From positions 4,402,001 to 4,466,000 of the forward strand of contig NZ_CP060497.1 in NCBI RefSeq assembly GCF_014334135.1: a DNA stretch of 64,000 bases, written 5' to 3'. Positions 22,983-61,328 of the stretch are shown here, piece after piece. The notes below the pieces were generated by a model. It had not been told where the DNA came from and ran no database searches. It saw only the letters and a program-made list of their open reading frames with translations. The position numbers and the translations under genes were made by a program. The DNA comes from Olivibacter sp. SDN3 (lineage in GTDB: Bacteria; Bacteroidota; Bacteroidia; Sphingobacteriales; Sphingobacteriaceae). Within the stretch, counting starts at the first letter, position 1; each line of letters begins with the position of its first letter.

Positions 22983-23118
22983 CAATACCCGGAATATCAG
23001 GCCTACTATCGCCAAGTCATTTAATCGCTTCTCTAATTTCTCAATCTTCCCTCTGGTCAATTTCTTCACTTCTTGGGAATCATCGTCTGCTATTTCTCCA
23101 TCGTTGTTTTGAATACAA
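22962..23118 (-). pseudogene. C-terminal fragment of an unrecognised protein fused behind rteC
   Basis: On the minus strand, open without a start, the frame encodes SQEVKKLTRGKIEKLEKRLN and then DLAIVGLIFRVLKKMPKS and a stop within the terminator stem. It is charged and helical. It joins the broken end of the truncated rteC out of frame, so it comes from another sequence. I do not recognise the family. Confidence 0.4.
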
Positions 23119-23593
23119 CAACCAGTGAGGTGGAAAAGGACTGGTCAGACTGGAAATAATAAGTGTCCAACCATAGCTTAATATCGTGGTTGCCCCGTAA
23201 AAACATTTTCTCGTCAAGGAACGAGTTATTGCTACGGTAGTACTTGTAAAAATCGAGGTTGTTGTCAAAGAACCTCTTTAGCTTTTTCAGTTCTTTTTTG
23301 AGGTATTTCCTTATGGGCTTTGCTCTGTAGGGCTTCTTTGTCTCGATTTTATAAATGGCGTTGTAGTAAATGAGTTTTGCTAAAATAGCAGGTTTCTGAT
23401 ATTTGAAAAAACGGATTTCTTCATTCACATTCTTAAACCCTCTTTTCAAGACATATTCCTTTACTTCGGACAAGCATTGTACAATTACGTGTATAACAGC
23501 CTCTATTCGTTGTACAGAGCAATCAGCATCTATTCCAGTTTCGGTGATTGAGGTTTCCAGTTTAGAAAGTGTTTCATTGTAAAATTTATCCAT
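23090..23593 (-). pseudogene. rteC: 3'-truncated rteC
   Basis: The first 155 residues match the intact RteC copies (start MDKFYNETLSKLETSITE, then FLDEKMFLRGNHDIKLWLD and YYFQSDQSFSTS). At the point where the others continue HDYKVAKIIANDLIQ, this copy switches to an unrelated tail and stops. The C-terminal half, including the part that resembles a DNA-binding region, is missing, so it is probably not functional. Confidence 0.88.
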
Positions 23594-26922: not shown

Positions 26923-27750
26923 TTACTTTTCATCCCGCTCATCCATTCTCCGTATTAGTTCCTCCCGAAGTGTATCAAGGAATTTAGTACGGTTCATCTT
27001 CCGGTTTCTCAATTCCAAATAGGTCTGGTAGAAATTGCCCAAATCAATGCCAAAGGCACTTTCAAAATATTGGGCTACTTCCCTTATATCGTTGTTCCCG
27101 TTGTCAAACACATTTTGATAATGCAGGGCATAAATCAATTCTATCAATGCCACTTTGCTACCTGTCCATTTCAGATTTTTCGGTGCTTTCGATTTGTCTT
27201 TTTGGAATTTGTTATACAACTGGTCTTCGATGTAAACCTGTATCAAATCGTTGGCTATTATCTTGGCGACCTTGTAATCATGTGATGTAGAAAAATTGTG
27301 GTCTGACTGGAAATAATAAGTGTCCAACCATAGCTTTATATCGTGGTTACCCCTTAAAAACATTTTCTCGTCGAGGAACGAGTTATTGCTACGGTAGTAC
27401 TTGTAAAAATCGAGGTTGTTGTCAAAGAACCTTTTTAGCTTTGTCAGTTCTTTGTTAAGGTATTTCCTTATGGGCTTTGTTCCATAAGGCTTTTTTGTTT
27501 CGATTTTGTAGATGGCATTGTAGTAAATGAGCTTGGCAACAATGGCAGGTTTCTGATATTTGAAAAAACGGATTTCTTCATCGATGTTTTTAAAACCTCT
27601 TTTCAGAACGTATGCTTTCAGTTCGGACAGGCATCCGAGGATAAGGTGGATCACCGCTTCTATCCGCTGAATAGAACAGTCTGCTTCAATCTCCATTGTG
27701 TCGATTGCCGTTTCGAGTTTAGATATTATTCCATTGTAAAAATTGTCCAT
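26923..27750 (-). CDS. rteC: RteC-type conjugative-element regulator, copy 1
   Basis: 275 residues, the usual RteC-domain length. In CTnDOT-type elements RteC is the DNA-binding activator needed for expression of excision genes. The sequence runs in the family order: YVLKRGFKNIDEEIRFFKYQ, AKLIYYNAIYKIETKKP, RFFDNNLDFYKYYRSNNSF, LRGNHDIKLWLDTYYFQSD, HDYKVAKIIANDLIQVYI and a C-terminal NGNNDIREVAQYFESAFGID. It shares most residues with copies at 45148 and 54086, yet with many silent differences, so the copies come from related but different elements. A traG 3' remnant follows immediately. Confidence 0.93.
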   Translation of the reverse strand: MDNFYNGIISKLETAIDTMEIEADCSIQRIEAVIHLILGCLSELKAYVLKRGFKNIDEEIRFFKYQKPAIVAKLIYYNAIYKIETKKPYGTKPIRKYLNKELTKLKRFFDNNLDFYKYYRSNNSFLDEKMFLRGNHDIKLWLDTYYFQSDHNFSTSHDYKVAKIIANDLIQVYIEDQLYNKFQKDKSKAPKNLKWTGSKVALIELIYALHYQNVFDNGNNDIREVAQYFESAFGIDLGNFYQTYLELRNRKMNRTKFLDTLREELIRRMDERDEK

Positions 27751-32961: not shown

Positions 32962-33346
32962 CTATTCATCGGGATGCCACCCCCAATCTCTAAAAGATGC
33001 CCGATAATATACTATTCTATATTCTATTTCTTCCTTTGGGTCTTTCCTTGAAATACGTATCGGCAGGGAATTATCCATTTGCGAGGCTACTATTCCATAA
33101 TTATCATTAATGACATCCAATAGTTTATGATAGAGAGTATACAGGGCTAATGTTTCATGAAATCTCTCTGTCCATTCTTCAAAAGATTGTTTACGCAATT
33201 GGCTGTAAGGGTCATTTTTGACATAATTATTCAATAAAATGCTTCTTCCCAATATTGAGTATTGAGAGTGGGCGATTGAATTTCTGATTTGAAAATTATA
33301 AGTATTTTTAAACGCATCATATAATCTTGGGATTGATTGCTTGAAT
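32962..33346 (-). pseudogene. HEPN-type protein gene, 3' part (split by IS256-like element)
   Basis: The frame is open from the IS to the stop at 32962 and encodes SIPRLYDAFKNTYNFQIRNS followed by IAHSQYSILGRSILLNNY and the C-terminus. RNSIAH fits the Rx4H signature of HEPN ribonucleases. It continues in frame the 5' part at 34706-35258 once the IS and one 8-bp duplication are removed. An ATG at 33252 is only an internal methionine. Confidence 0.75.
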
Positions 33347-34705
33347 GGGAGTGTAAAACAAACTGTGTCAATGGCTGAATTACCGCCCCGCGGGGCGGTA
33401 ATTCAGCCATTTTGCTTATTGCAAATCTAACACCATTCTTCCCGGAAACCAAATGGCTAATTTCTGTGCTGTTGTTCCCCAATTGGCCAGTGGCATCGTC
33501 CATTTCTTCTTAATGTTTTTATGGGCTAGATAGATCAGTTTCAATAACGCCATATCTGAAGTGAAGGCACCTTTAGTTTTAGTGACCTTACGGACCTGGC
33601 GATGGAATCCCTCGATCGTATTGGTGGTGTAGATCAATTTTCGGATGGATTTATCGTATCGGAAATAGGTGGTCAGACGATCCCAGTTACGCCGCCAGGA
33701 GTCGATGACCACCGGATACTTTTCACCCCATTTATCCTGAAGTTCATCCATCCGCAATCCGGCAAGATCCAATGTGTCAGCCCGGTAGACAGGCTTTAGA
33801 TCGCTCATAAACTCCTTTTGGTCCTTACTGGCCACATACTTTAAGCTATTCCGGATCTGGTGCACGATACAGGTCTGTACTTCGGTATCGGGAAAAACAC
33901 CCTGTATTGCTTCTGAAAACCCTTTTAGGTTATCGATACAGGCAATTAAGATATCCTCTACACCTCGGTTCTGTAAGTCCGTCAGTACGCTCAGCCAAAA
34001 GTTAGCCCCCTCACTCTCCGAAACATACATCCCTAATAAATGCTTATGTCCGTTTCGGTCAACGCCAAGGATATTGTATACAGCCCGAGAAACAAAACGA
34101 TGGTCTTCTTTCACCTTGTAGTGCATGGCATCCATCCAAACAATCGTATAAAGAGAATCCAGGCTTCGTGATTGCCATTCCCTGACCTGGGGAATAATCT
34201 TATCGGTAATCGAAGAAAGTGTACTGTGGCTGATATCCGTATCGTACATCTCCTTGATGTGGTTGGAAATATCCCGAAAACTCATACCCAAGCCATACAT
34301 GCCTAAAATCTTCTTCTCTAGGCTCTCAGCTAAAATCGTCTCCCGTTTCTTAACGAGTTGGGGCTCGAAATTGGATCGACGATCACGGGGAGTATCGATA
34401 TCGATCGTACCCTCAGAAGTCCGAATCTGCTTACTGGACTTGCCGTTACGCCGATTACCACCGGAGCGTTGGGCTTCGTCCATATGGCTCTCCATTTCAG
34501 CTTCCAACGCGGCTTCTAAAAATTTCTTCATTAAAGGAGCAAAAGCTCCGTTCTTGCCATAAAGTGATTCTCCGCTGCGTAACTGTTCCAGAGCTTTATC
34601 CTTCATGGACTCAAAATCAAAATCGCTTTCTTTAATACTCATAATTACTATGTCAAAAATAATACTTCTATTTATTATCCTTGACACAGTCTATTTTACA
34701 GTCTC
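33347..34705 (-). mobile_element. IS256-family insertion sequence
   Basis: 1359 bp. The inverted ends read GGGAGTGTAAAACAAACTG (left) and, inward from the right, GAGACTGTAAAATAGACTG, both followed by TGTCAA. The 8-bp target duplication GCTTGAAT (33339-33346 and 34706-34713) is perfect, as expected for IS256. It carries one transposase gene and interrupts a HEPN-type gene in phase, so removal restores the frame. Confidence 0.95.
33416..34642 (-). CDS. IS256-family transposase
   Basis: 408 residues from ATG 34642; an upstream ATG at 34687 lies in the terminal repeat. It belongs to the Mutator/MULE-type transposases: TIVWMDAMHYKVKED (first Asp), ILIACIDNLKGFSEAIQGVFP (second Asp, DNLKGF signature), VQTCIVHQIRNSLKYV (the family C/D(2)H box) and TTNTIEGFHRQVRKVTK (Glu). 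Complete and probably active. Confidence 0.95.
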   Translation of the reverse strand: MSIKESDFDFESMKDKALEQLRSGESLYGKNGAFAPLMKKFLEAALEAEMESHMDEAQRSGGNRRNGKSSKQIRTSEGTIDIDTPRDRRSNFEPQLVKKRETILAESLEKKILGMYGLGMSFRDISNHIKEMYDTDISHSTLSSITDKIIPQVREWQSRSLDSLYTIVWMDAMHYKVKEDHRFVSRAVYNILGVDRNGHKHLLGMYVSESEGANFWLSVLTDLQNRGVEDILIACIDNLKGFSEAIQGVFPDTEVQTCIVHQIRNSLKYVASKDQKEFMSDLKPVYRADTLDLAGLRMDELQDKWGEKYPVVIDSWRRNWDRLTTYFRYDKSIRKLIYTTNTIEGFHRQVRKVTKTKGAFTSDMALLKLIYLAHKNIKKKWTMPLANWGTTAQKLAIWFPGRMVLDLQ

Positions 34706-35258
34706 GCTTGAATCGGTCTCGAATTTTAGTCCGTATAATTACGTCTCTGGTTCCAGTTGCACCTTTTTCTCTACTTGTTGTTTGAAGTTTGTAATGCCAA
34801 TCATAAGCGAACCCCAAAGAAAGATTTGCGAGTTGAAAAAACTTCTTAATAAAAGTATCTGACTCCCAAATTTTCAAATAAATCAACATTTCCGTTTGGA
34901 TGGATATTGCTTCATCAAAGTTTATTTGGTCAATTTCTTTCCTTTTTTCTTCGGAATACACTAAGTTTTTTAAGTGGTTTTCTAACGTTTCTGATGAGGT
35001 ATTATGTTTAATGTATTGGCCTATAAAGGAATGATGAGTATTCTCGGAGTGACCTTCGTGATTAGGGCCAAACATGTAAGGACTCATTTTTTGCTCAGTA
35101 TTATTCCAATTATGTACATCAGGATTGTAAAATGCATTTAAATGCACCAACAACAAATCACTGTCATGCGTTTGATTTTTGACAATGAGTTCATGTAACT
35201 TATCGAACTCTATTATTAGCTCTCCATATTTCTTGTTTAATAGTTCTTCAAATAACAT
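34706..35258 (-). pseudogene. HEPN-type protein gene, 5' part (split by IS256-like element)
   Basis: 184 codons from ATG 35258 (MLFEELLNKKYGELIIEFDK), running into the IS. In the present sequence the frame continues a few codons into the terminal repeat and stops near 34668. Joined to 32962-33338 it gives a 309-residue, largely helical protein with RNSIAH near residue 203. It starts 56 bp after the stop of the nuclease-like gene, on the same strand, suggesting a two-gene operon. I do not recognise a named family. Confidence 0.75.
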
Positions 35259-35314
35259 ATTTTATACAATAATCATTAATTAAAGATACTAATCAACTTG
35301 CTTACCAGCAAACA

Positions 35315-37024
35315 CTAAGATTTCGACTGAGATGGTGAAAAATCAAGCCCTGACAGCTCTGTTGCAAAATTCTCTGAAAATGGTTTAAAAAGGTTGCCAA
35401 TAGTCTCATCTTTCAGTTTTTTTTGCAGATAACTATCGAAAGATATTGATGATGCTAAGTAACTGTATATATCATTTTTATTTGAATTATATTGTTTTTT
35501 TTGTCTGTCAATCTCCTTGAAATAGCTTTTAATTAAGTTTGTGAAGTTATTTTTATCACGGTTGAGGTAGCCAAAATATTTTATTAATGTATTTACATTT
35601 AGAACAAGAACAGGTTTAACGGTTTGGTATTTCTCTCTTATCTCGTCAAAATCGGCTGAACATTTTTCATTAATAAAAGCATTTATACCAAACACATTAT
35701 AATTTGTATCTGATGTCAGCAAGATGGGGTAAATATTCAACCTTTTAATCTTTTTAATTTTGAAAATGTCTGATACTTCATCGTGATTTGCATTGTCAGA
35801 AATTTGCTTTAGTTGATGTAATATCTGATAAACACCCTTGTTTTTACCACTTGCTTCTTTCTTGCTTAGAAAATTATCCTCTATCTCTTTTCTAAAGGCG
35901 TCAAAGTCAATATTCTCCATTGCCTTTACATGCACGTTTGTCATTTTGGTTTCTATGACAAGGAGATTGTCTGATGACGTCTTTATGAGAAAATCTTGAT
36001 ATTTATCATCACTATGAACTACTTGTCGGTTATGTGAGAAAATTTTCTGAAGTAGAATTTTACAGAGGTAACCCTCAAAATATTCTTTACCAATGAAAGA
36101 TAAAAAATTATTCAAATTGCTCAACTTACTTCTGGATGGCTCAATAGTTTTTTTGAAAATCTTAAAGAAAAAACCTTGGTCTATCGTGTATTGAAAAAAA
36201 TTGAAATCAAGTATTATGAACTCGTCATTATCACAATCAAATAATGGTCTTGGTATAATATCAAAATTCAAAGTTACTTCCTGTTTTTTATCTATATATT
36301 CTCTTCCTATTGTCCAATCTTTGAGAAAGTCAGTTGGAACGTCCGTTTTCTTCAAAACGAATTTTACGTTACTCTTGTCATTATCTGTATATAGTCCTAT
36401 CAAAAATTTGGCAATGTTCCATGGAGAGGCTATACCATAGTCTTGACAAAAACTTATTGTCGGATTTCTTAGCTGTACATTATCACTTAGAAATTTGCAC
36501 ATGAATGCAAATTTTAAAAGGTATATTATCGGTGTTGTATCACGTATATAATATTGTTGTAATGCATCTAACGCAAAAACATCTCTGAAACTGGTCAAAT
36601 TGCTGGTAGCATCTAATTTGTCGTTATATTTTTCGTTATAAATGAGTATAGTTTTGAAAAGGTCGATTGCAAATTCAGTATATGGCAAATCCTCCGGCTG
36701 ACTTTCATTATAGTTATTTAAAGCATCTTTTATGAGTTCAGATAAATTGGCAGAGGCAAAAAAGCTACCATTACTTGTTTTATAATCAAGATGAGCTACT
36801 AACTTTCTTACGACAGATATTTCTCCAAAAAGAACTTCCTCAAAAATTCTTCTGTCATGTTCTTCTTCTTTTACGTGATATATTATGGCGTTTATATAAG
36901 CAATCTTAATTAGGATATTTTTTGTGGAGTATTTTCGCAACAGTGAAAATGTATCGCTCGGCAGTGATGCATTAAAAACATCCTGATAACCATATACCAC
37001 CTTTAAACTTTTTATTCCCTCCAT
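35315..37024 (-). CDS. Large protein with a PD-(D/E)XK-like nuclease core, unknown family
   Basis: 569 residues from ATG 37024; an upstream ATG at 37066 is possible. The first 300 residues are mostly helical with no motif that I recognise. Between 317 and 360 the order E317 (KEYFEGYL), D344 (KYQDFLIKTS) and E358-x-K360 (LLVIETKMTN) after a hydrophobic strand fits a PD-(D/E)XK nuclease core. The C-terminal third is charged. The neighbour on the same transcript is a HEPN-type protein. Position in an ICE cargo slot suggests a defence role, which remains a hypothesis. Confidence 0.6.
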   Translation of the reverse strand: MEGIKSLKVVYGYQDVFNASLPSDTFSLLRKYSTKNILIKIAYINAIIYHVKEEEHDRRIFEEVLFGEISVVRKLVAHLDYKTSNGSFFASANLSELIKDALNNYNESQPEDLPYTEFAIDLFKTILIYNEKYNDKLDATSNLTSFRDVFALDALQQYYIRDTTPIIYLLKFAFMCKFLSDNVQLRNPTISFCQDYGIASPWNIAKFLIGLYTDNDKSNVKFVLKKTDVPTDFLKDWTIGREYIDKKQEVTLNFDIIPRPLFDCDNDEFIILDFNFFQYTIDQGFFFKIFKKTIEPSRSKLSNLNNFLSFIGKEYFEGYLCKILLQKIFSHNRQVVHSDDKYQDFLIKTSSDNLLVIETKMTNVHVKAMENIDFDAFRKEIEDNFLSKKEASGKNKGVYQILHQLKQISDNANHDEVSDIFKIKKIKRLNIYPILLTSDTNYNVFGINAFINEKCSADFDEIREKYQTVKPVLVLNVNTLIKYFGYLNRDKNNFTNLIKSYFKEIDRQKKQYNSNKNDIYSYLASSISFDSYLQKKLKDETIGNLFKPFSENFATELSGLDFSPSQSKS

Positions 37025-38593: not shown

Positions 38594-39442
38594 ATGAGAC
38601 ATCCTTTGAACAACATTGTGGCTGACATCCAAAAGCAAGAAAGAAAGCTGTCAGCCGAAACATCCAGTTTCATTGACGAGGCGTATAAAATGACGATTTA
38701 CCTCCAAGAGTTGTTGCATACCTTAAAGGATGACGTAATAAAAGAGGGCTTTTCCAGTAAGGACGAGGAAATACATTTTTTCAAACAGGTAAAGCCAAAC
38801 ATCCTCGGAAAACTTATCTATTACAATAAGGTGTACCGGATTGAGACAGCCTGCCCCGTAGATAACGGCAATTTGTACCAAAGTTATTTTGCTATCAAAT
38901 TACAGGGTTTGAAACAGGAATACAGAGAGCATATATGCAATTCGGCTTTTTACAGATACTACCGTTCCGGCAGAAACGATAAAGACGAGGAATATTTCAC
39001 GTTGGGAAACATTAATTATTATGATGGGCTGAACAGTTATGTATTTGAAATCGACCCCAAATTTTCGACCTACTTTGATTACAAAGTAGCGAAAATCATA
39101 GCCAACGAATTAATCTATAATTATCTGACGACAAAACTAAGCCCCGAACAAAATCCCGATGTATTACTACAACAGGAGGAAACAAAAGACTTCTTTTGGA
39201 CACAGACAAAAAATGCCCTTATCGAATTGATTTATGCACTCTATGCCTGTGATGCCATTTCACATGGGAAAATCGGCATCCGCAAAATCAGCATGGTATT
39301 CCAAATCCTGTTCCGTGTGTCGCTGAACGACATCCATAACAGCTTCCATCGAATGAAAACCCGTGCAGGCTCACGGACATTGTTTTTAGACCAACTCAAA
39401 TACAGTTTAGAGGAATATATGGACAGGGAAGACAACCAATAA
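38594..39442 (+). CDS. RteC-domain protein, divergent type
   Basis: 282 residues. It shares the RteC pattern with the other copies (IHFFKQVKPNILGKLIYYNK, YRYYRSGRNDKDEEYFTLG, DYKVAKIIANELIYNYLT, ALIELIYALYAC) but only about a third of the residues, and it is on the opposite strand. It is followed by a terminator and the helix-turn-helix/DUF4099/topB module, the arrangement common to Bacteroidota conjugative transposons. It is therefore the RteC-like gene that belongs to this core segment. The IS1380 element ends 16 bp before its start. Confidence 0.85.
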   Translation: MRHPLNNIVADIQKQERKLSAETSSFIDEAYKMTIYLQELLHTLKDDVIKEGFSSKDEEIHFFKQVKPNILGKLIYYNKVYRIETACPVDNGNLYQSYFAIKLQGLKQEYREHICNSAFYRYYRSGRNDKDEEYFTLGNINYYDGLNSYVFEIDPKFSTYFDYKVAKIIANELIYNYLTTKLSPEQNPDVLLQQEETKDFFWTQTKNALIELIYALYACDAISHGKIGIRKISMVFQILFRVSLNDIHNSFHRMKTRAGSRTLFLDQLKYSLEEYMDREDNQ

Positions 39443-41649: not shown

Positions 41650-43457
41650 ATGAAAGCAATCATTGCAGAAAAGCCAAGTGTGGCGAGAGAAATAGCTACC
41701 CTGTTGGGAGCGACCGAAAAACGGGATGGCTACCTCACAGGAAACGGCTACGAAGTTACGTGGGCATTGGGGCATTTGGTCGGACTGGCGATGCCCGAAG
41801 ATTACGGGGTATCGGGCTTCCAAAGGGAAGCCTTGCCCATATTGCCCGACCCTTTTTTATTGACGGTACGCAAGATAAAAAAGGACAAAAGTTATGTTCC
41901 CGATAACGGGGCATTAAAACAGTTGAAGATTATCGAACAGGTCATCGGTAGATGCGATAGTATTATCGTGGCCACCGATGCCGGACGTGAGGGTGAACTC
42001 ATCTTTAGGTATATCTATGAATACCTAAAATGCCGGAAACCCTTTGAACGTCTATGGATAAGCTCGCTCACGGAAAAGGCGATTAAACAGGGTTTTGACA
42101 ACCTAAAAGCCGGAAGCGATTTTGACGGGCTATACAGAGCCGGACAAGGACGGAGCAAAGCCGATTGGCTTGTGGGTATCAATGCCTCGCAGGCGTTGAG
42201 CATTTCGGCAGGACGTGGCGTTTACTCGCTTGGTAGAGTACAAACGCCAACGCTTGCCCTCATCTGCAAGCGGTATTTGGAAAACAAGGATTTTGCCGTC
42301 AAAAAATACTTCCAAATCCAGTTGGAACACCGCAAGGAATTTACAGACTTTAAGAGCCTGTCAAAGACCAAATGGGATGACAGGAAACTTGCTGACGATA
42401 CGCTGAAATCCATTCAGCGTAACGGAACAGCGACCGTTACGGCAGTGGAAACCAAAACAGCTACGGAGCAACCGCCATTGCTGTTCGACCTAACGGGATT
42501 GCAGAAAGAAGCCAATAAAAGAGCATCCTATACTGCCGAGGAAACATTGAACATTGCCCAAAGCCTGTATGAAAAGAAGTTTATCACCTACCCCCGTACA
42601 GGAAGCAAGTACATCCCCGAAGATATGTGGTCGGAAATCCCTGCACTGGTAAGAAATTTGGAAGCACGGGCTTCCTGCAAAAAAGCGGTCGGAAAAGTGA
42701 AATGGGGGCGTTTCAACAAACGCATCGTGAATGACGTAAAGGTCACAGACCACCACGGTCTGCTGATTACCGAAAAAATCCCGTCCGAATTAACGGCACA
42801 CGAAAATGTTATTTATGATATGATTGCGCACCGCCTACTGGAAGCCCTTTCGCCTGCCTGTACCAAAGAAATAACCGACATCGGATTGCAGGCTCTGCAC
42901 TATGACTTCACATTGAAAGGGTGTAAAATCCTCGAAGCCGGTTGGCGTGGCATCAAAGAAAAATTTACAGATGAGGACAGCGAGCCTGTGCAGGAACTGC
43001 CGGAATTAAAGGTCGGTGATGAGCTGAAAATCAAAGAGGCATCCGTACTGGAAAAGAAAACCAAACCGCCTGTGCTTTACACCGAGGCAGGTCTGTTGTC
43101 CGCAATGGAAAATGCCGGAAAAGAGATTGACAACGAGGACGAACGGAAAGCCCTAAAAGACATCGGCATCGGCACACCTGCCACAAGAGCCTCTATTATA
43201 GAAACGCTTTTTAAGAGGGATTACATTCGGCGTGAAAAGAAATCCCTAATCCCTACCCATAAGGGATTGCAGGTTTACGGGGCAGTAAAGGACAAAAAGA
43301 TTGCCGATTTAGCCATGACCGCCGAATGGGAAATGGCATTGCAGAAAATCGAAAACAACGAGGCGGATGCAGGTGCTTTTCAGCGTGAAATGGAAACCTA
43401 TGCCACTTCAATTACACGGGAACTTTTGGACACGGGCATTGCCCATGAAAAGCAACC
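41650..43457 (+). pseudogene. topB: DNA topoisomerase III, 5' part (split by IS150-like element)
   Basis: 602 codons before the IS. The Toprim domain has the N-terminal MKAIIAEKPSVAREIA and ATDAGREGELIFRY, and the active-site region reads YEKKFITYPRTGSKYIPED with the catalytic tyrosine. Type IA topoisomerases of this kind resolve DNA during transfer or replication of ICEs. The present frame ends in the IS with GIAT and a stop at 43471-43473. Joined to 44711-44987 in frame, the original was 694 residues with a C-terminal zinc-finger-like region, a normal family length. Confidence 0.9.
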
Positions 43458-43487
43458 TGGAATTGCAACTTAAAATAGGAGACTTTT

Positions 43488-45147: not shown

Positions 45148-45975
45148 CTACTTTTCGTCCTGCTCGTCCATTCTCCGTAGAAGTTCTTCCCGAAGCGCAT
45201 CAAGGAATTTTGTACGGTTCATCTTCCGGTTTCTCAACTCCAAATAGGTTTGATAAAAATTGCCTAAATCAATGTCAAAGGCACTTTCAAAATATTGGGC
45301 GACTTCTCTTATGTCGTTGTTCCCGTTGTCAAACACACCTTGATAGTGTAGGGAATAAATCAATTCTATCAAGGCTACTTTACTACCTGTCCATTTCAGC
45401 TTCTTTTGGGTTTTCGATTTGTCTTTTTGGAATTTGTTATACAACAGGTCTTCGATGTAGACCTGTATCAAATCGTTGGCTATTATCTTGGCGACCTTGT
45501 AATCATGCGAGGTAGAAAAAGTATGGTCGGACTGAAAATAATAAGTGTCCAACCACAGCTTTATATCATGCTTGCCCCGAACAAAAAAACTTTCGTCAAG
45601 AAAAGAATTATTGCTACGGTAATACTTATAAAAATCGAGGTTGTTGTCAAAGAACCTTTTTAGTTTTTTCAGTTCTTTGTTGAGGTATTTCCTTATAGGC
45701 TTTGCTCCATAGGGTTTCTTTGTCTCGATTTTGTATATGGTATTGTAGTAAATGAGTTTGGCAACAATGGTGGGTTTCTGATATTTGAAAAAGCGGATTT
45801 CTTCATCAGCATTCTTAAACCCTCGTTTCAGAACATACTCTTTTACATCGGACAGGCATTCGAGAATAAGGTGTATAACAGCTTCTATCCGTTGTATGGA
45901 GCAATCGGCTCCAATCTCCAATTCGTTGATTGCTGTTTCGAGTTCATACAGCGTTTTCTTATAAAATTTATCCAT
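45148..45975 (-). CDS. rteC: RteC-type conjugative-element regulator, copy 2
   Basis: 275 residues. It differs from copies 1 and 3 by scattered substitutions (for example NADEEIRFFKYQKPTIVAKL and SFFVRGKHDIKLW in place of KMFLRGNHDIKLW). This copy is not followed by a traG remnant but by the inverted repeat and the topB end, which looks like the original ICE setting of rteC. It is the likeliest native rteC of the element whose topB is at 41650. Confidence 0.93.
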   Translation of the reverse strand: MDKFYKKTLYELETAINELEIGADCSIQRIEAVIHLILECLSDVKEYVLKRGFKNADEEIRFFKYQKPTIVAKLIYYNTIYKIETKKPYGAKPIRKYLNKELKKLKRFFDNNLDFYKYYRSNNSFLDESFFVRGKHDIKLWLDTYYFQSDHTFSTSHDYKVAKIIANDLIQVYIEDLLYNKFQKDKSKTQKKLKWTGSKVALIELIYSLHYQGVFDNGNNDIREVAQYFESAFDIDLGNFYQTYLELRNRKMNRTKFLDALREELLRRMDEQDEK

Positions 45976-46741: not shown

Positions 46742-48775
46742 TTAGTTAAATTTCATACGTTGTATTCTTACTGCATTCAGTATAGCCAATAATGCCACAC
46801 CTACATCGGCAAATACGGCTTCCCACATTGTGGCTAATCCACCTGCACCAAGTATCAATACAACGGCTTTCACTCCAAATGCTAAAGCTATGTTTTGCCA
46901 AACTATTTTCTTTGTCTGTTTACCGATATTGATTGCCATTGGTATTTTACTCGGCTTATCATCCTGTATTACCACATCGGCAGTTTCAATAGTAGCATCG
47001 CTTCCTAAACCGCCCATTGCTATACCTACATCACTTAATGCCACAACAGGTGCATCATTCACACCGTCTCCTACAAATGCAACGTTTTCGTTTTTAGCTT
47101 TTATCTCTTTGACTTTATTTACTTTGTCTTCGGGCAGTAAATCGCCAAACGCATAATTGATGCCCAATTTTTCTGCAACAAATTTTACTACGGTTGATTT
47201 GTCGCCACTTAACATGGTAGTTTTTACATGGAGAGATTTTAGTTTGTCAATCGTAGTTTGTGCATCCTCCTTTATAGTGTCTGCAATAGTGATATAGCCT
47301 ACAAATTTGTTATCGTAAGCCACGGTAATTACGGTGTAAACAATGCTATTCGGGTCAATGTCATAAGTGATAGAAAACTTATCCATCAACTTAAAATTTC
47401 CTACCAATAATTCTTTCCCGTTTACATTGGCTTTTAATCCGTGTCCTGCTATTTCTTCTACATTTTGTAATGGGATATTGTTATTTACAGCACCAACATA
47501 TTGCTGAATGGCAGTTGCTACGGGGTGTGTGCTGTGGCTTTCCAAAGCATTTACCATTTGGAGGATTTCCGCTTGATTAAATTCTTTATCAAAAACAACT
47601 TCCTGCACATTAAAAACACCCTCTGTCATTGTGCCTGTCTTATCCATCACCACATTTTGGATATTGGCAAGTGCATCTAAAAAATTACTTCCCTTAAACA
47701 GTATTCCGTTTTTGCTTGCTCCGCCAATTCCGCCAAAGTAACCCAAAGGAATACTTATCACTAATGCACAAGGACACGATATAACTAAGAATACCAATGC
47801 CCTGTACAGCCAATCTGAAAACTGATAATCTGTTACGAAAAAATAAGGCAGTAAGCAAATGGCTACTGCTAACACCACAACAACAGGCGTATATATTTTT
47901 GCAAACTTTCTGATGAATAACTCTGTCGGTGCTTTTTGAGAAGTAGCATTTTGTACCAATTCCAAAATCTTGCTTAACTTGCTATCTGTATATGCTGTGG
48001 TCACTTTTACCTGTGAAACGGTGTTTAGGTTTATCATTCCTGCCAATACGGTTTCTCCTTTTGATTTGGTGTCTGGTTTACTCTCTCCTGTGAGTGCAGA
48101 TGTGTTGAACGATGCTTTTTCAGATAACAATTCTCCGTCCAATCCTAATTTTTCGCCCGACTTTAATTGTATAATCTCACCAATAGCAACCGTTTCCGCT
48201 TTTACAACTTTTGGCTGATTATCTTGTAAAATTGTAACTTCATCAGGTCGTTGGTCAAGCAAAGATTTAATGTTTGTTTTGGCTCTTTTTACCGCTAATG
48301 TCTGAAACACTTCGCCAACAGAATAGAATAGCATTACGGCAACACCCTCGGGATATTCGCCGATGGTAAATGCTCCAATGGTGGCAATACCCATTAAAAA
48401 AAACTCCGAAAAAATCTCGCCTTTACGGATACTTTCAACTGCTTCTTTTAGTACGGGAAAGCCAACAGGGGCATAAGCAACCACATACCAAATAATCCTT
48501 ACCCAATCTGTAAACCATTCGGGTTTTAGCACATTATCAAAGTAAATGGCGACAAGTAATAATACCAATGAAATAATGCTCGGCAAGAACATTTTAATAA
48601 TACTGCTTCTACCAACTTCCTCCCTTTGTGTGTTGCCCTTTTGATTGGCTTCTCCATCCGTTGAGCAACAAGTATCATCTACAATTTGCCCTGCACCTGC
48701 TTGGGTATATATTTTCTCTTCTTGTGTGCAACAAAGCTGTTTGCCTTGTGCGTCATAAATATGTTTATGTTTCAT
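46742..48775 (-). CDS. Heavy-metal-transporting P1B-type ATPase (Zn/Cd/Co type)
   Basis: 677 residues. Catalytic core: CPC motif in SCPCALVISIP (metal site in membrane), SALTGESKPD, phosphorylation DKTGTMTEG, ATP-binding HP in SHSTHPVATA and hinge GDGVNDAPVVALS. The CPC with LGYFGGIGGASKNGI and no HMA domain fits the ZntA/CadA group of exporters. The N-terminus instead has cysteine pairs (QLCCTQEEK, DDTCCSTDG) that could bind metal. It exports soft divalent cations from the cytoplasm; the exact ion is not certain. It follows the TonB receptor in the same orientation. Confidence 0.92.
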   Translation of the reverse strand: MKHKHIYDAQGKQLCCTQEEKIYTQAGAGQIVDDTCCSTDGEANQKGNTQREEVGRSSIIKMFLPSIISLVLLLVAIYFDNVLKPEWFTDWVRIIWYVVAYAPVGFPVLKEAVESIRKGEIFSEFFLMGIATIGAFTIGEYPEGVAVMLFYSVGEVFQTLAVKRAKTNIKSLLDQRPDEVTILQDNQPKVVKAETVAIGEIIQLKSGEKLGLDGELLSEKASFNTSALTGESKPDTKSKGETVLAGMINLNTVSQVKVTTAYTDSKLSKILELVQNATSQKAPTELFIRKFAKIYTPVVVVLAVAICLLPYFFVTDYQFSDWLYRALVFLVISCPCALVISIPLGYFGGIGGASKNGILFKGSNFLDALANIQNVVMDKTGTMTEGVFNVQEVVFDKEFNQAEILQMVNALESHSTHPVATAIQQYVGAVNNNIPLQNVEEIAGHGLKANVNGKELLVGNFKLMDKFSITYDIDPNSIVYTVITVAYDNKFVGYITIADTIKEDAQTTIDKLKSLHVKTTMLSGDKSTVVKFVAEKLGINYAFGDLLPEDKVNKVKEIKAKNENVAFVGDGVNDAPVVALSDVGIAMGGLGSDATIETADVVIQDDKPSKIPMAINIGKQTKKIVWQNIALAFGVKAVVLILGAGGLATMWEAVFADVGVALLAILNAVRIQRMKFN

Positions 48776-48810
48776 TATTAATCTATTTGAGGGTTAATGT
48801 TTTCATTACT

Positions 48811-50982
48811 TTATAACCTAAATTTTATTCCACCATTAATTACAAATCCGTCCAATGGTGCATAGATGTCTCTAAAGACAGGGTTGGTTATCGTGCCTGT
48901 ATAGATGTTGTCAAAGCGTGTCTGCCTTGTATCAAGGAAGTTTTCAAAGTTGATATACAAAGAGAAACGTTCCCAAATCTTTTCAGCCATAAAGCCACAC
49001 ATCCAATAGTCCTTTCCAGTTGTACCGTCATTCAGCTTTTGGGGGCTGAAATAATAGGCTTCCAAACCAATCTTCCATTTATCCTCTATTTCGTACATCA
49101 GTACGGAATTAATACGGTGTTTTGGGGTCAATGGATTTTCGGTATTTGTTCCGTTTTCAAGCAATCGGGTATCGGTAAAGGTGTAGCCCAAAAACAGTTT
49201 CAAATCATCATAGCCGATTTTCACATTGGTTTCTGTGCCTTTGGTATGGATGTAACCCGATGAATTAATGAACTGATAAGTATTTGTTGCCATATTTTGA
49301 AGCAACAATGGATTGTCCAAATAGGTGTAAAAGAATAAATGGTTGATGCTGAACGTCCAATCATCACCCATATTAGTACGGTAATTTATGTCTGCGTTTG
49401 CTCCGTAGCTCTTTTCCAATTTATTGGTATTATCATCAATGGGCATAACGTTTTGATATTGTATGCGTTCGCTTTCTTCAGTAAAAATGGTGGGTGTTTT
49501 ATACCCAAATCCACCCCCGATGCGTGAAGTCAATCCGTTTGCAATATGAAATAATGCCGATACTCTTGGCAGAAAAACAGCCCCGTAATCCACCACGTAA
49601 TCCGTTCTCAAACCTGTTTCCAATTGAAACCATTCCGTAGCCTTAAAAGAATTTTGAACAAAAGCCCCTAATGTGGTTTGGTTGTAATCCCTTAACGGAA
49701 ATGCGGTAATCTGTTTTTCTTTGAAATTGTCCGTCCAAATATTAACACCTGTTATCCATTCCGATTTTTCTTTGCTGTGGGTATAGCTTGCTTCCGTAAA
49801 AGTGGCTGTTTGCGTTCCCTCAAACTCGTAATTAGGAATAGCTGTATTGCGGTTAAAATAACTTACGCTGTTTTTGACTTGAACAAAACTGTTTTCATTT
49901 ACTGTATGGTCAAAAACAAATTGGGTGGAATAACGCTGTGTTTTGTTTTCCTCAAAAAATTGGTGCGTGTTGTCCGCTTTTCCTTTTATATAAAGCATGT
50001 CGCCACCCAAACGGTTTTCAATGGTGGTGTTGATGCCAAAGTTCATTTTAGTTTTATCATTGAAGTAAACAAATAACCTTGGGTTCAGCACATACCGTTC
50101 AAATTGGGGAATGGCAGAAAGTCCGATTTGTGCAGGGTCGTAAGCTCCGTTGCGGTTGTGTGAAGCGAATATTGTTGTTCCGATTTTCTTAAACTTCTGT
50201 CCGTAAAAACCGTTGATGTCCAACCCTCTGCCCGATGTGCCGTTTAAATGAAAACGTAAATCCCTTTCTTCCGTTGGTGTCTTGGAAATTAGATTTACCA
50301 AACCTGCTATTGCTCCACCACCATACAGCGTAGAGGTTGAACCCTTAATAACTTCAACCTGCTTTAAGTCAAGCGGTGGAATTTGCAACAAGCCCAATCC
50401 GCTTGAAGCACCGGAATAAATCGGGAAACCGTCTTTTAAAATTTGCGTATATCGCCCGTCAAGTCCTTGAATACGAATACTTGCATTGGCACTTGTGGGT
50501 GATGTAGTTTGTACATGAATACCTGTACTCTCACTCAAAAGCATACGAATATCCCCTGCTTTCATATTTCCTTTTTCGTCCAATTCTTCACCTCCGATAA
50601 ATTCAATACGGGTGGGAATATTTTGTATGCTTCTCGTACTTCTGGTAGAGGATATAACAATTTCGTCTAATTCCTCTGAACTTTCTTTGAGTAGGATTTC
50701 AATAACACTGGTGTCCTTTAACGGAAATTCTAATGTATCAATACGTTCATTGAAGCCTATATAACTAAAATGTATTTCCTGTAATCCATTAGGAATATTG
50801 ATTAACGTAATTTGTCCGTTCTCGTTAGATGTTGCTCCAATTGAAGTACCTTTTATAGATGCCGTTACGCCAATTAAAGGTTCTTTTGTTCCACTGCTTT
50901 TTACAACAGCGTTTAACGTGTTTTGTGCATGTACACAAAGGTTTAGTGCCATGAAAAATGACACAATGAGTATTTTTTTCAT
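48811..50982 (-). CDS. TonB-dependent outer-membrane receptor
   Basis: 723 residues with a signal peptide (MKKILIVSFFMALNLCVHA). A carboxypeptidase-like regulatory domain comes first (LNAVVKSSGTKEPLIGVTAS), then the plug (NIPTRIEFIGGEELDEKGNM, with VEVIKGSTSTLYGGGAIAGL) and the 22-strand barrel ending in a terminal aromatic strand (GGIKFRL). It sits within the metal island between a Cys-rich protein and a P-type ATPase, so a metal chelate is the probable ligand; uptake of a metal next to export genes is odd and not resolved by sequence. Confidence 0.92.
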   Translation of the reverse strand: MKKILIVSFFMALNLCVHAQNTLNAVVKSSGTKEPLIGVTASIKGTSIGATSNENGQITLINIPNGLQEIHFSYIGFNERIDTLEFPLKDTSVIEILLKESSEELDEIVISSTRSTRSIQNIPTRIEFIGGEELDEKGNMKAGDIRMLLSESTGIHVQTTSPTSANASIRIQGLDGRYTQILKDGFPIYSGASSGLGLLQIPPLDLKQVEVIKGSTSTLYGGGAIAGLVNLISKTPTEERDLRFHLNGTSGRGLDINGFYGQKFKKIGTTIFASHNRNGAYDPAQIGLSAIPQFERYVLNPRLFVYFNDKTKMNFGINTTIENRLGGDMLYIKGKADNTHQFFEENKTQRYSTQFVFDHTVNENSFVQVKNSVSYFNRNTAIPNYEFEGTQTATFTEASYTHSKEKSEWITGVNIWTDNFKEKQITAFPLRDYNQTTLGAFVQNSFKATEWFQLETGLRTDYVVDYGAVFLPRVSALFHIANGLTSRIGGGFGYKTPTIFTEESERIQYQNVMPIDDNTNKLEKSYGANADINYRTNMGDDWTFSINHLFFYTYLDNPLLLQNMATNTYQFINSSGYIHTKGTETNVKIGYDDLKLFLGYTFTDTRLLENGTNTENPLTPKHRINSVLMYEIEDKWKIGLEAYYFSPQKLNDGTTGKDYWMCGFMAEKIWERFSLYINFENFLDTRQTRFDNIYTGTITNPVFRDIYAPLDGFVINGGIKFRL

Positions 50983-51067
50983 TGTAAAATGATACTTAAT
51001 GTGAATAAATAAACGATGACGATGCAGAGCATCGTTACTAATTAATTTGTGCTGAAAGCACTACACA

Positions 51068-51379
51068 TTAAGCGATTTGTGGGGGATGCCAAATAGAATA
51101 GGGAAAGTCTGAAACAGGTGACGTAGTTATTGCTCCTAATTTCTTTTCAGGTAGTTGTACAGAGTTTGCTGTTGAAAAATAAAATGAGGTTATTACAAAC
51201 CCCGTACAAGTATTACATTTAGAAAAAGGGGAGCAACAATCCATACCGCAATCATCATTGTCTTGTTCTTGACTGTCTGTTATTTGTTGTGCGAGGTCAA
51301 GGCATTTATCTTCCACAAAGCAAGGTGCTGTTGATAACACCAACACCATTAAAGCTAATATGAATGATAAATATTTCAT
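51068..51379 (-). CDS. Small exported cysteine-rich protein (DUF6660-like)
   Basis: 103 residues from ATG 51379; the upstream ATG at 51409 would put the signal at residue 11. A signal peptide (MKYLSFILALMVLVLSTAPC) precedes a Cys-rich region (DDCGMDCCSPFSKCNTC, five to six Cys in 17 residues). Proteins of this shape appear next to metal-related TonB receptors in Bacteroidota and may bind metal in the periplasm. That function is inferred from composition and context. Confidence 0.7.
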   Translation of the reverse strand: MKYLSFILALMVLVLSTAPCFVEDKCLDLAQQITDSQEQDNDDCGMDCCSPFSKCNTCTGFVITSFYFSTANSVQLPEKKLGAITTSPVSDFPYSIWHPPQIA

Positions 51380-51447
51380 TATGCAAAGGTAAAAAAAATT
51401 AGTTTTCAAATCTCTACTCTTATTTCATCCCTTAAAAAAAACCTTTT

Positions 51448-52479
51448 CTATGTGTAATACTTTCCCTTTAACCACAAACTTGCTCTTACCAATAATATCA
51501 ATACCGGAACTTCCACAAGTGGGCCGATAACGCCCACAAATGCCTGTGGTGAATGAATGCCAAAGACAGCTATTGCTACGGCTATTGCCAATTCAAAATT
51601 ATTTCCTGTGGCTGTAAATGCGATGGATGCGTTTTTGTCGTAAGGAACATTTAAGAATTTGCTGATAAAGAAGCTCACGAAAAACATCAGTACAAAATAG
51701 ATGATAAGCGGTATAGCTACTTTTACTACATCCATTGGCAACTCCAATATTTTATCACCTTTCAGACTGAACATCAATACTATGGTAAACAATAAAGCAT
51801 ATAATGTAACGGGTGATATTTTGGGAACGAATTTGCGGTTATACCAGTCTATACCTTTTGATTTTACAAGTGCATAACGGCTTATAAAACCTGCGAAAAA
51901 TGGAATACCCAAATATATCAGCACGCTTTCGGTTACATCTTTCATGGATACGGTTACGTTGAAATCGGCTAAGCCTAATTTGTTGGGCAGAACATTGATG
52001 AACAGCCAAACAAAGAAGCTGTACGTCAATATCTGAAAGATACTGTTCAATGCTACCAATAATGCCGTATATTCCCTATTGCCCTTTGCCAAGTCACTCC
52101 ATACGATGACCATTGCGATACACCTTGCCAAGCCAATCAGTATCAGACCTGTCATATAATCCGGTTCGTTCCGTAAGAACAGAACGGCTAAACCGAACAT
52201 CAATAGTGTGCCGATAAGCCAATTCAGCAATAAAGATATGCCGATTACTTTGGTGTCTTTAAGGGCTTTGGGCAACAATGAATAATCCACCTTAGCCAAC
52301 GGGGGGTACATCATCAATATAAGCCCTATCGCCAAAGGGATATTGGTCGTGCCTACGGATAGGGCATCGGTAGCATTGGAAATGTTCGGAAAGAAATATC
52401 CCAAGCCTACGCCTGTCGCCATCGCAAGGAATATCCATAAGGTAAGATAGCGGTCAAGAAATTTTAGTTTGGGTTGCAT
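51448..52479 (-). CDS. acr3: Arsenite efflux transporter, ACR3 family
   Basis: 343 residues with ten hydrophobic segments. ACR3 features are the opening [39 protein letters not shown], the conserved cysteine in [20 protein letters not shown] that is essential in studied members, and [16 protein letters not shown]. It exports As(III) from the cytoplasm using the proton gradient. It starts 3 bp after arsC on the same strand, so translation is likely coupled. Confidence 0.94.
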
Positions 52480-52482
52480 CGG

Positions 52483-53097
52483 CTAACTCTTAATCATTGA
52501 AAAAACATAGCACATTTCTGTTGCTATCTGTAAACTTCTTTCTGCATATACCTTTGATTGCTCCGGTGTCCCGTCTGAAATCTTGGGGTCTTCAAATGTG
52601 ATAGGTATTCTCTTTTCCGCTCCGGCAATAAACGGACATCCGCCGTCTGCCTGCGAACAGGTCATAATGGCGACAAATGCCGATGCAGGGTTGAAAGAGC
52701 TGTCGTATTGCTTGGAAAATCCAATGATTGGCAAATCATTATCCCCATATTTTATGGCATATACAGGATTATCGGTTTCCGCAATCTTGAAAATAGTAAA
52801 ACCTTGATTGGTCAATGTTTCCGCCACTTTCGGGAATAGTGCCGTTTCTTCCGTACCGCCCGAATAAGAATGTACATTCGGGATATTGAAATACGCACCT
52901 GCGACCTGCGCCCATATCTGTGCGAAGTGGCTTCTGCGTGAATTATGGGTGCAGATGAAATTGAGGTTTATGTCCGCTCCGCTGTTTGCTTTCTGCCGTA
53001 CATAATCTATCAGCGGTTGCAGTATCGCTTTGCGTTCCTCGCTTACGTTTTGGTTGTCAATAACTCCCCTTATGGTTTCGGCTAAATTCTTGTACAT
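52483..53097 (-). CDS. arsC: Arsenate reductase, LMW-PTP-like
   Basis: 204 residues. The phosphatase P-loop is C49-THNSRRS, with SYSGGTEETALFPKV and MTCSQADGGCPFIAGAEKRI downstream holding the resolving cysteines of the LMW-PTP/thioredoxin-type ArsC. It reduces As(V) to As(III) for export by Acr3. An N-terminal extension of about 40 residues relative to the shortest members is also seen in other Bacteroidota. Part of the arsR-DUF6428-arsC-acr3 operon. Confidence 0.93.
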   Translation of the reverse strand: MYKNLAETIRGVIDNQNVSEERKAILQPLIDYVRQKANSGADINLNFICTHNSRRSHFAQIWAQVAGAYFNIPNVHSYSGGTEETALFPKVAETLTNQGFTIFKIAETDNPVYAIKYGDNDLPIIGFSKQYDSSFNPASAFVAIMTCSQADGGCPFIAGAEKRIPITFEDPKISDGTPEQSKVYAERSLQIATEMCYVFSMIKS

Positions 53098-53116
53098 TAT
53101 GATTTGTCTTTAGTGT

Positions 53117-53581
53117 TTAGCAACATCCCGAATTAGGTGTACAGCACGTGCTGTTCAGCTCCGATAATTTTACTTTTTGTTTTTCCGCAGGAATACCGCA
53201 GGCATCATTTGCCAAACAAGCCGTCTGTTTGTTCTTTAGGATGAAACGCTGACCGTCAAAGTCCAAGTCAAACTTGCCAATCGTTTCGGTTTGGTATTCT
53301 ACTTCGATTTCGGCCTCTTCCATTCCCAATTTTTCTTCTGACAGCTTGATGATGTTCAATAGTTTGGTAGGTTTTATCCTGTGTTCATAGTCGTTGGCAT
53401 CCCACAGTTGGAAGTTTACTGCTTTCTCCGTGCGGACTACACCACCACAGTCAATAAAATGTTTGGTAATCTGTCCTACTTCCGTCACGTGGAAATGTTC
53501 GGGAACAAAAGTTCCGTTCTCTAATTGAAATTCAACATTGTCCAATGTTGGCAGGATTTCTTTGATTTTTGATAGTTTCAT
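53117..53581 (-). CDS. DUF6428-family protein of ars operons
   Basis: 154 residues from ATG 53581; upstream in-frame ATG 53611 would overlap the palindrome. The sequence (LDNVEFQLENGTFVPEHFHV, then GVVRTEKAVNFQLWDANDYE) is that of a small protein found next to arsR/arsC in Bacteroidota. The C-terminus is Cys-rich (STCCTPNSGCC), as if to bind arsenite or another thiophilic ion. Biochemical role is unknown. Confidence 0.75.
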   Translation of the reverse strand: MKLSKIKEILPTLDNVEFQLENGTFVPEHFHVTEVGQITKHFIDCGGVVRTEKAVNFQLWDANDYEHRIKPTKLLNIIKLSEEKLGMEEAEIEVEYQTETIGKFDLDFDGQRFILKNKQTACLANDACGIPAEKQKVKLSELNSTCCTPNSGCC

Positions 53582-53616
53582 AATAACTGAACTTAAAAAA
53601 TGAAAAAACAAACTAT

Positions 53617-53630
53617 ATATTGCAATATAA
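53617..53630. promoter_or_regulatory. ArsR operator candidate 2
   Basis: TATATTGCAATATA is a perfect 14-bp palindrome between arsR and the DUF6428 gene. GCAATATAACGATTAT in it resembles GCAATATTACGATGTA in the operator before arsR, so both are likely to bind the same repressor. Confidence 0.55.
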
Positions 53631-53653
53631 CGATTATATGTGCTAAAAAAACA

Positions 53654-53986
53654 CTACGTACAGCACTTCATTACTTGTACTTCTTGATTAAAAAACGTAT
53701 TCAATTCGGCTTGAATTTCTTTCCATATATTTTCATCAATACAATAACAAACGGATTTCCCCTCAATAGTTCCCTGTATGATACCGATGCTTTTTAGCTC
53801 TTTTAAGTGCTGTGAAATGGTTGCCTGTGCCAATCCCAATTCATCGACCAAATCGTTACAGATACAGGTTTTCTGATTGATGATATATTGGAGAATGGCA
53901 ACCCTTGCAGGATGCCCTAAAACTTTAAACAAAGAAGCCAATTTGTTCTGTTCGTCCGTAAATATTTCTGTTTTAGTAAGCCCCAT
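53654..53986 (-). CDS. arsR: ArsR arsenic-responsive repressor
   Basis: 110 residues. The winged helix reads LFKVLGHPARVAILQYI, DLVDELGLAQATISQHLKEL and GIIQGTIEGKSVCYCIDEN. The KTCICNDL cysteine pair in the DNA-recognition region is the As(III)-binding site of ArsR-type sensors. It is the first gene of the ars operon and should repress it until arsenite binds. Candidate operators lie before its start codon and before the next gene. Confidence 0.93.
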   Translation of the reverse strand: MGLTKTEIFTDEQNKLASLFKVLGHPARVAILQYIINQKTCICNDLVDELGLAQATISQHLKELKSIGIIQGTIEGKSVCYCIDENIWKEIQAELNTFFNQEVQVMKCCT

Positions 53987-61327: not shown

Positions 61328-61328
61328 A

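What the first reader, a model, noticed from the sequence alone, without database searches (positions are those of the whole stretch)
32962..37024. Candidate two-gene defence system: PD-(D/E)XK-like protein plus HEPN-type protein
Seen: a 569-residue protein with E317, D344 and ExK at 358-360 in nuclease-core order, followed after 56 bp on the same strand by a gene that, once an IS is removed, encodes 309 residues with RNSIAH (Rx4H). Known: HEPN ribonucleases and PD-(D/E)XK nucleases are common effectors in phage defence, and ICE cargo slots are enriched in such systems. Neither protein belongs to a family that I can name. Inference: a toxin/effector pair aimed at nucleic acids, possibly an undescribed defence system.
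Basis: partly seen in the sequence, partly recalled or inferred. Interest (0 to 1): 0.8.

Follow-up and report, generated by a model that had tools for sequence, protein, structure and literature searches.

The report
Two solo defence-type nucleases, not pair
Two neighbouring genes on a mobile element of a Pedobacter-related bacterium look like separate, unnamed phage-defence enzymes (one DNA-nuclease-like, one RNase-like and broken by a jumping gene) that only occasionally sit together, so each is worth testing on its own rather than as a fixed pair.

Summary
Observation confirmed. Protein A (35315-37024, minus, 569 aa) is intact; its PD-(D/E)XK residues are kept in 31 to 33 of 33 relatives. 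Protein B starts 56 bp downstream and is split by an IS256-type element with an 8-bp target duplication; its RNSIAH motif lies in the far piece, and R, N and H are invariant in 48 of 48 relatives. No Pfam, NCBIfam or PADLOC model fits either (NCBIfam with window sequences only). The model of A has one PDB match under E 0.001, the defence protein Upx (5.7e-4). B has a confident model but no fold match, so 'HEPN' rests on the motif. Pairing is weak: 3 of 52 B-family loci have an A in flanks of up to 8 kb; 1 of 35 loci found through A has a B-family gene, 10 kb away; A genes with a B nearby are not one clade. Many more PADLOC models match around both genes than in control regions. Best reading: two independent solo defence genes, A a compact Upx-like nuclease, B a HEPN-like RNase inactivated here.

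The parts
35315..37024 (-). Protein A, 569 aa: mostly helical N-terminal part (about residues 1-300), PD-(D/E)XK core (E317, D344, E358-x-K360, Q400), helical C-terminus
   Evidence: AlphaFold2 model pLDDT 82.9, pTM 0.85; Foldseek to Upx 9wuf E 5.7e-4, probability 1.00
34714..35258 (-). Protein B, upstream piece (profile positions 1-185 of 307); its open frame runs on to 34668 inside the insertion
33347..34705 (-). Insertion sequence with Mutator/IS256-type transposase (frame 33416-34687 as listed), splitting gene B
33339..33346 (.). 8-bp target-site duplication, left copy
34706..34713 (.). 8-bp target-site duplication, right copy
32962..33338 (-). Protein B, downstream piece (profile positions 181-306 of 307) with the R-N-S-I-A-H motif

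Best explanation
The locus holds two separate single-gene defence modules that happen to be neighbours in the cargo of a conjugative element. A is a stand-alone, metal-dependent PD-(D/E)XK nuclease whose helical N-terminal half, shared in fold with the much longer defence protein Upx, probably senses a sign of infection and releases nuclease activity against phage or cell DNA. B belongs to a second stand-alone family, a HEPN-like ribonuclease that would cut RNA and stop growth on infection; in this genome it should be inactive, because an IS256-type insertion, probably recent, separates its catalytic motif from the N-terminal part. Shown: residues, conservation, insertion, mostly solo distribution, defence-rich neighbourhoods, fold match of A to Upx. 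Inferred: nuclease and RNase activity, sensing, defence, target.
For: A: catalytic set in 31 to 33 of 33 rows; secondary structure of the model in PD-(D/E)XK order (helix 304-330 with E317, strand 345-348 after D344, strand 353-360 with E358 and K360, helix 398-410 with Q400, strand 430-437); the only Foldseek PDB hit under E 0.001 is Upx, over 516 alignment columns. Mostly solo: in 22 of 299 other genomes of the order (one of these is a fragment, one has a stop inside) and 15 of 344 others of the phylum (one a fragment), with varied neighbours. Neighbourhood: 132 neighbour proteins of 34 A loci matched 340 PADLOC models at E 1e-10, against 31 models for 126 proteins of 32 control regions; A neighbours include Septu PtuA and PtuB, HEC-06, type I methylase and PDC-S01 models. 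B: 108 neighbour proteins of 54 loci matched 296 models, among them DRT, AbiLi and AriA. B's motif is 48 of 48 with N after R, as described for HEPN RNases (PMC3710099, passages). A is intact while B is broken.
Against: The Upx match has TM 0.27 (by query length) and rmsd 13.7, so it is not a rigid match; the next hits are non-significant and mostly unrelated (collagenases at E 0.24 to 0.42, bromodomains), with PD-(D/E)XK enzymes (Hjc, tRNA splicing endonuclease, a Cas4-family protein; superfamily recalled) only at E 2.9 to 5.9. No PDB chain was found by sequence below E 0.25, and none named Upx. No fold hit for B; profile comparisons with HEPN-type sequences gave probabilities of 0.3 to 6.5 percent, against 0.2 to 0.8 for three non-HEPN controls. 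PADLOC counts are models, not proteins (one protein can match dozens; the commonest model was hit by 3 of 132), and the control regions matched some too (mad2, methylases). The closeness of A and B in L113, L119 and L123 is more than random placement on a chromosome would give (my estimate 0.015 for 52 loci; two or more then p 1.1e-4) and could mean function.
Confidence: 0.66

Rival explanations
1. A and B form a loose two-effector defence module: A cuts DNA and B cuts RNA as a backup triggered by the same infection, assembled in several lineages.
For: Same strand, 56 bp apart; A and B families within about 0.8 kb on one strand in L113, L119 and L123; A rows with a B nearby lie at three positions on the tree; random expectation for 52 loci about 0.015 by my estimate.
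Against: 49 of 52 B loci have no A in the fetched flanks, some of them cut by contig ends; 34 of 35 loci found through A have no B-family gene; co-occurrence per genome 2 of 299, expected 0.96, p 0.25; gene order and intervening genes differ (SEC-C protein in L113 and L119, protein with a sub-threshold HEPN_RiboL-PSP match in L123); three label changes may also be one gain and two losses, and L123 sits on a very long branch; clustering of defence genes in islands would explain the excess.
Confidence: 0.14
2. B is not a HEPN RNase but another helical protein with an RNxxxH motif, for example a nucleic-acid or nucleotide binding protein.
For: Confident model (pLDDT 94.3) with no PDB or viral fold match under E 0.001; no HEPN model in Pfam reaches the window pieces or 7 intact relatives.
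Against: R, N and H are 48 of 48 together with an upstream E; mostly helical model with the motif on a short helix before a long one; HEPN families are poorly conserved outside the motifs (PMC3710099, passages).
Confidence: 0.15
3. A is a genome-maintenance or mobile-element nuclease (for example helping the conjugative element) rather than a defence protein.
For: Carried on an element with relaxase, coupling protein and topoisomerase; some relatives lie beside serine recombinase-like genes (L052, L059; by eye) or conjugation genes on a plasmid.
Against: Neighbours of A relatives match many defence models (against 64); patchy presence, 22 of 299; fold match to Upx.
Confidence: 0.1

Closest known systems
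Upx (single-gene anti-phage system of Gao et al. 2020, recalled; PDB 9wuf)
   Same: Foldseek match over 516 alignment columns of A, E 5.7e-4, probability 1.00; single gene (recalled for Upx); Upx is listed under nucleic acid degradation in PMC10855318 (table passage)
   Different: A is 569 aa against 1212; no sequence-level match to any PDB chain named Upx; no PADLOC model matched the window protein at E up to 10; TM 0.27, so domains are placed differently or only part is shared
Shedu (SduA, DUF4263) and other solo PD-(D/E)XK defence nucleases (recalled)
   Same: single-gene PD-(D/E)XK nuclease with an extra N-terminal domain
   Different: no DUF4263 or Shedu model matched; one member touches NERD at E 0.057 and one L_protein_N at E 2.7e-4, each 1 of 21
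HEPN superfamily (Anantharaman et al. 2013, PMC3710099)
   Same: R-N-x-x-x-H with polar residue after R in 48 of 48; upstream invariant acidic residue; mostly helical model
   Different: no family model, no fold hit; the upstream residue stands in E-x3-Y rather than E-x3-K/R; strands after the motif and at the C-terminus

Membership tests
PD-(D/E)XK superfamily (protein A) | Conserved E ... D ... (D/E/Q)-x-K plus Q in order | tested here: met
   31 to 33 of 33 rows per position; 21 of 21 in the first alignment
PD-(D/E)XK superfamily (protein A) | alpha-beta-beta-beta-alpha-beta core | tested here: met
   order of elements in DSSP of the model. Coordinates were not at hand, so site geometry was not measured; Foldseek hits to PD-(D/E)XK enzymes were not significant (E 2.9 to 5.9)
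PD-(D/E)XK superfamily (protein A) | Metal-dependent nuclease activity | not testable with these tools
   needs biochemistry
Upx (protein A) | Fold similarity to solved Upx | tested here: met
   9wuf E 5.7e-4, probability 1.00, 516 columns; but TM 0.27, rmsd 13.7
Upx (protein A) | Sequence-level homology | tested here: not met
   no PDB chain below E 0.25 by profile or single-sequence search; no PADLOC model for the window protein; that PADLOC holds an Upx model is recalled
Upx (protein A) | Length about 1200 aa | tested here: not met
   569 aa here; unbroken relatives have open frames of about 480 to 630 aa; Upx chain 1212
HEPN (protein B) | Rx4-6H with polar residue after R | tested here: met
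   R203, N204, H208 in 48 of 48; present in the window's downstream piece
HEPN (protein B) | Upstream acidic residue, typically Ex3[KR] | tested here: inconclusive
   E123 is 48 of 48 but followed by Y at +4
HEPN (protein B) | HEPN helical bundle | tested here: inconclusive
   mostly helical, pLDDT 94.3, but no Foldseek hit under 0.001 in PDB or viral library
HEPN (protein B) | Profile similarity to a known HEPN family | tested here: not met
   no Pfam HEPN hit; hhalign probabilities 0.3 to 6.5 percent
Two-gene A+B defence system | Homologues recur as adjacent pair | tested here: not met
   A in the flanks of 3 of 52 B loci; B in 1 of 35 A-found loci, 10 kb apart. A was not searched in the named genome collection
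Anti-phage defence gene (A and B) | Neighbourhood enriched in known defence genes | tested here: met
   340 and 296 PADLOC models against 31 in control regions; counts of models, control not matched for B
Anti-phage defence gene (A and B) | Protection against phage | not testable with these tools
   needs plaque assays

The most novel reading that the evidence does not exclude
Both families are undescribed single-gene immune effectors: A is a compact version of the Upx fold that shows Upx to be one branch of a wider class of sensor-nuclease proteins, and B is a new HEPN-like class; their juxtaposition in several lineages marks a modular DNA-plus-RNA double strike that is assembled again and again.
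Probability: 0.15. Interest if true: 0.75.

Novelty: new variant of a known kind. Interest (0 to 1): 0.5.

Why it matters
If right, two families without a model in Pfam or PADLOC join the list of likely defence genes, and one gives a compact (about 570 aa) version of the Upx fold that should be easier to study than the 1212 aa protein. B was found mainly in Bacteroidota (48 of the 52 record titles, by my reading of the names); A was searched by profile in Bacteroidota only. It also warns that two nuclease genes lying side by side in island cargo need not be one system.

Tried and rejected
Obligate pair: rejected. Known family: no match over a curated cut-off for A (window protein in Pfam, NCBIfam, PADLOC; 21 members in PADLOC and Pfam) or B (two window pieces in all three; 7 intact relatives in Pfam; 9 in PADLOC); PADLOC gives no cut-off, there I looked for any match. 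Weak single-member matches: CARF8 E 0.026, L_protein_N 2.7e-4 and zf-C2H2_8 0.0023 for A; Cas13a 0.0084 for B; I did not pursue them. Phage or viral origin: no A match in 50,697 phage records, no confirmed relative of A or B in viral contigs; one plasmid record held a distant A relative. HEPN link by profile: tried with DUF4145, MAE_28990, RiboL-PSP-like and one further HEPN-like sequence; mostly only the motif aligned, 72 columns for the RiboL-PSP-like one at probability 3.3 percent; a search for pEK499_p136 gave only a broken fragment. Papers: eight searches, seen as listings, showed none whose title or abstract start describes A or B; the terms were general or aimed at Upx. Conserved third partner: none stood out among first neighbours of A or B.
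Full report
What is there. The window lies in a 6.12-Mb single-contig genome. The surroundings carry conjugation genes (relaxase 60038-61360, TraG/YWFCY coupling protein 56900-58900, topoisomerase 41650-43473), two RteC-family genes on either side of the locus and several IS. Genes A and B are AT-rich (31 and 33-34 percent GC against 40 percent for the window), as foreign cargo often is.

Protein A. It is 569 aa and intact. A search of 300 genomes of the order found relatives in 23 including the own, and a profile search of 345 genomes of the phylum in 16 including the own; a few hits are fragments or carry a stop. Alignments of 21 and 33 members keep P260, D344, K360, Q400 and P433 in 33 of 33, E317 in 31 of 33 and E358 in 32 of 33; the exceptions are D (L113, L119) and Q (L123), which this superfamily tolerates (recalled). 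The AlphaFold2 model is good (pLDDT 82.9, pTM 0.85) and places these residues on helix, strands and helix in the expected order. Foldseek against the PDB gives one match under E 0.001: 9wuf, 'Cryo-EM structure of Upx', E 5.7e-4, probability 1.00, 516 columns, TM 0.27 by query length, rmsd 13.7. The other hits (97 in all up to E 10, the best 50 shown) are not significant and mostly unrelated. Upx is, as I recall, a single-gene system of Gao et al. 2020; in the library I saw it only in passages of PMC12629846 and PMC10855318, the latter listing it under nucleic acid degradation. By sequence no PDB chain came below E 0.25. I therefore call A Upx-like in fold, not an Upx.

Protein B. The gene is split by an IS256-type insertion. 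I worked with intact relatives: hits in 14 of 300 order genomes including the own (some are fragments or weak), in 4 of 345 phylum genomes including the own, and at 52 loci of the named genome collection. Of these 52, 43 entered the 48-row alignment; nine were left out as duplicates of other rows, cut at contig ends, split, fused or longer, or weak (L086, L087, L093, L117, L122, L125, L126, L129, L137). E123, Y127, W131, Y152, R203, N204 and H208 are 48 of 48. This is the HEPN motif as described in PMC3710099 (passages): Rx4-6H, N, D or H after R, often an upstream acidic residue. A model of the L032 relative is very confident (pLDDT 94.3, pTM 0.91), yet Foldseek finds nothing under 0.001 in the PDB or among viral proteins, and comparisons with other HEPN-type sequences stay at 0.3 to 6.5 percent probability, three non-HEPN controls at 0.2 to 0.8. 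HEPN membership is thus a motif-level inference. In the window the motif lies beyond the insertion, so B should be inactive here.

Are they a pair? Of 52 B loci, three have an A-family gene in the fetched flanks (up to 8 kb a side, some cut by contig ends): L113 (Bacteroidetes bacterium 46-16) and L119 (Taibaiella soli), nearly the same genes, in the order B, SEC-C protein, A; and L123 (Algoriphagus algorifonticola), in the order A, 144-aa protein with a sub-threshold HEPN_RiboL-PSP match, B, next to a type III restriction-like gene (by eye). Of 35 loci found through A and fetched with wide flanks (two fragment hits were not; some loci are near-copies of others), one (L052, G062) has a B-family gene, 10 kb away. 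Per genome in the order sample, excluding the own, A is in 22, B in 13 and both in 2 of 299 (expected 0.96; p 0.25); in the phylum sample A is in 15, B in 3 and both in 0 of 344 others. On the A tree the four rows with a B nearby need three changes of the label, which supported branches force, so they are not one clade; three changes may be one gain and two losses, 47 of 500 label shuffles do as well, and L123 sits on a very long branch. Different order and different intervening genes speak for separate assembly (inference). Random placement would give about 0.015 cases for 52 loci (my estimate from about 0.08 A per 5 Mb); clustering of defence genes in islands can explain the excess, a functional link is not excluded.

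Defence context. At E 1e-10, 132 neighbour proteins from 34 A loci matched 340 PADLOC models, 108 neighbours from 54 B loci matched 296, and 126 proteins from 32 control regions of A-bearing genomes matched 31. These are counts of models, not of proteins; no single model was hit by more than 3 of 132 (A) or 4 of 108 (B); the control regions matched mad2 and methylase models among others and are not matched to the B genomes. Names among A neighbours: HEC-06, Septu PtuA and PtuB, type I methylase, PDC-S01; among B neighbours: DRT reverse transcriptases, AbiLi, AriA, HEC-01A. A distant A relative on a Hymenobacter plasmid, annotated hypothetical protein, lies beside an AbiEii-type gene.

Mechanism. 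Shown: conserved catalytic residues, fold of A, insertion in B, mostly solo habit, defence-rich neighbourhoods. Inferred: A senses infection through its helical half and cuts DNA; B cuts RNA. That A stays intact while B is broken, and that most of A's relatives live without B nearby, argues that A does not need B as partner or antidote.

Novelty. No family model in the libraries used, and no paper in eight listings whose title or abstract start describes either family; the library lacks most subscription papers and the terms were general, so this is not proof. As kinds, solo PD-(D/E)XK nucleases and HEPN RNases in defence are well known, hence new variant of a known kind.

Noticed in passing
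window 23090-23593, 26923-27750, 38594-39442, 45148-45975, 54086-54913: RteC-type regulator genes recur between cargo blocks; Pfam confirms RteC for 26923-27750 and 38594-39442, the other three only by look-alike N-termini.
   Followed up: partly
window 33347-34705; genome 2363975-2365328 and 4713511-4714869: Three near-identical copies of the IS256-type element in the genome, suggesting recent activity.
   Followed up: partly
L040 (G016, same genus as the window): A 41-aa fragment of the B family lies near a frame that looks like another IS256-type transposase (by eye).
   Followed up: no
L023 (G071:C2:142746-142898): A 51-aa relic 71 percent identical to A's C-terminus, closer than the intact relatives (up to 36 percent), with a stop inside.
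   Followed up: no
L123:5383-9462: A-family gene followed by three smaller genes that each carry an RNxxxH motif (the second is the B relative), next to a type III restriction-like gene (by eye).
   Followed up: partly
L113:8852-9490 and L119:8849-9487: SEC-C motif protein (212 aa; Pfam for L113) 4 bp upstream of an A-family gene, a possible partner in that branch.
   Followed up: no
L126:7680-9347: A 555-aa frame with the B family in it, longer than usual; possible fusion.
   Followed up: no
L052, L059, L060, L061: Related A genes beside a HEC-06/GmrSD-type gene (L052; L060 and L061 by likeness) or a serine recombinase-like gene (L052, L059; by eye), which suggests shared integration islands.
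   Followed up: partly
window 46742-53986: P-type metal ATPase and genes that look like arsenic resistance (by eye) in the same element.
   Followed up: no
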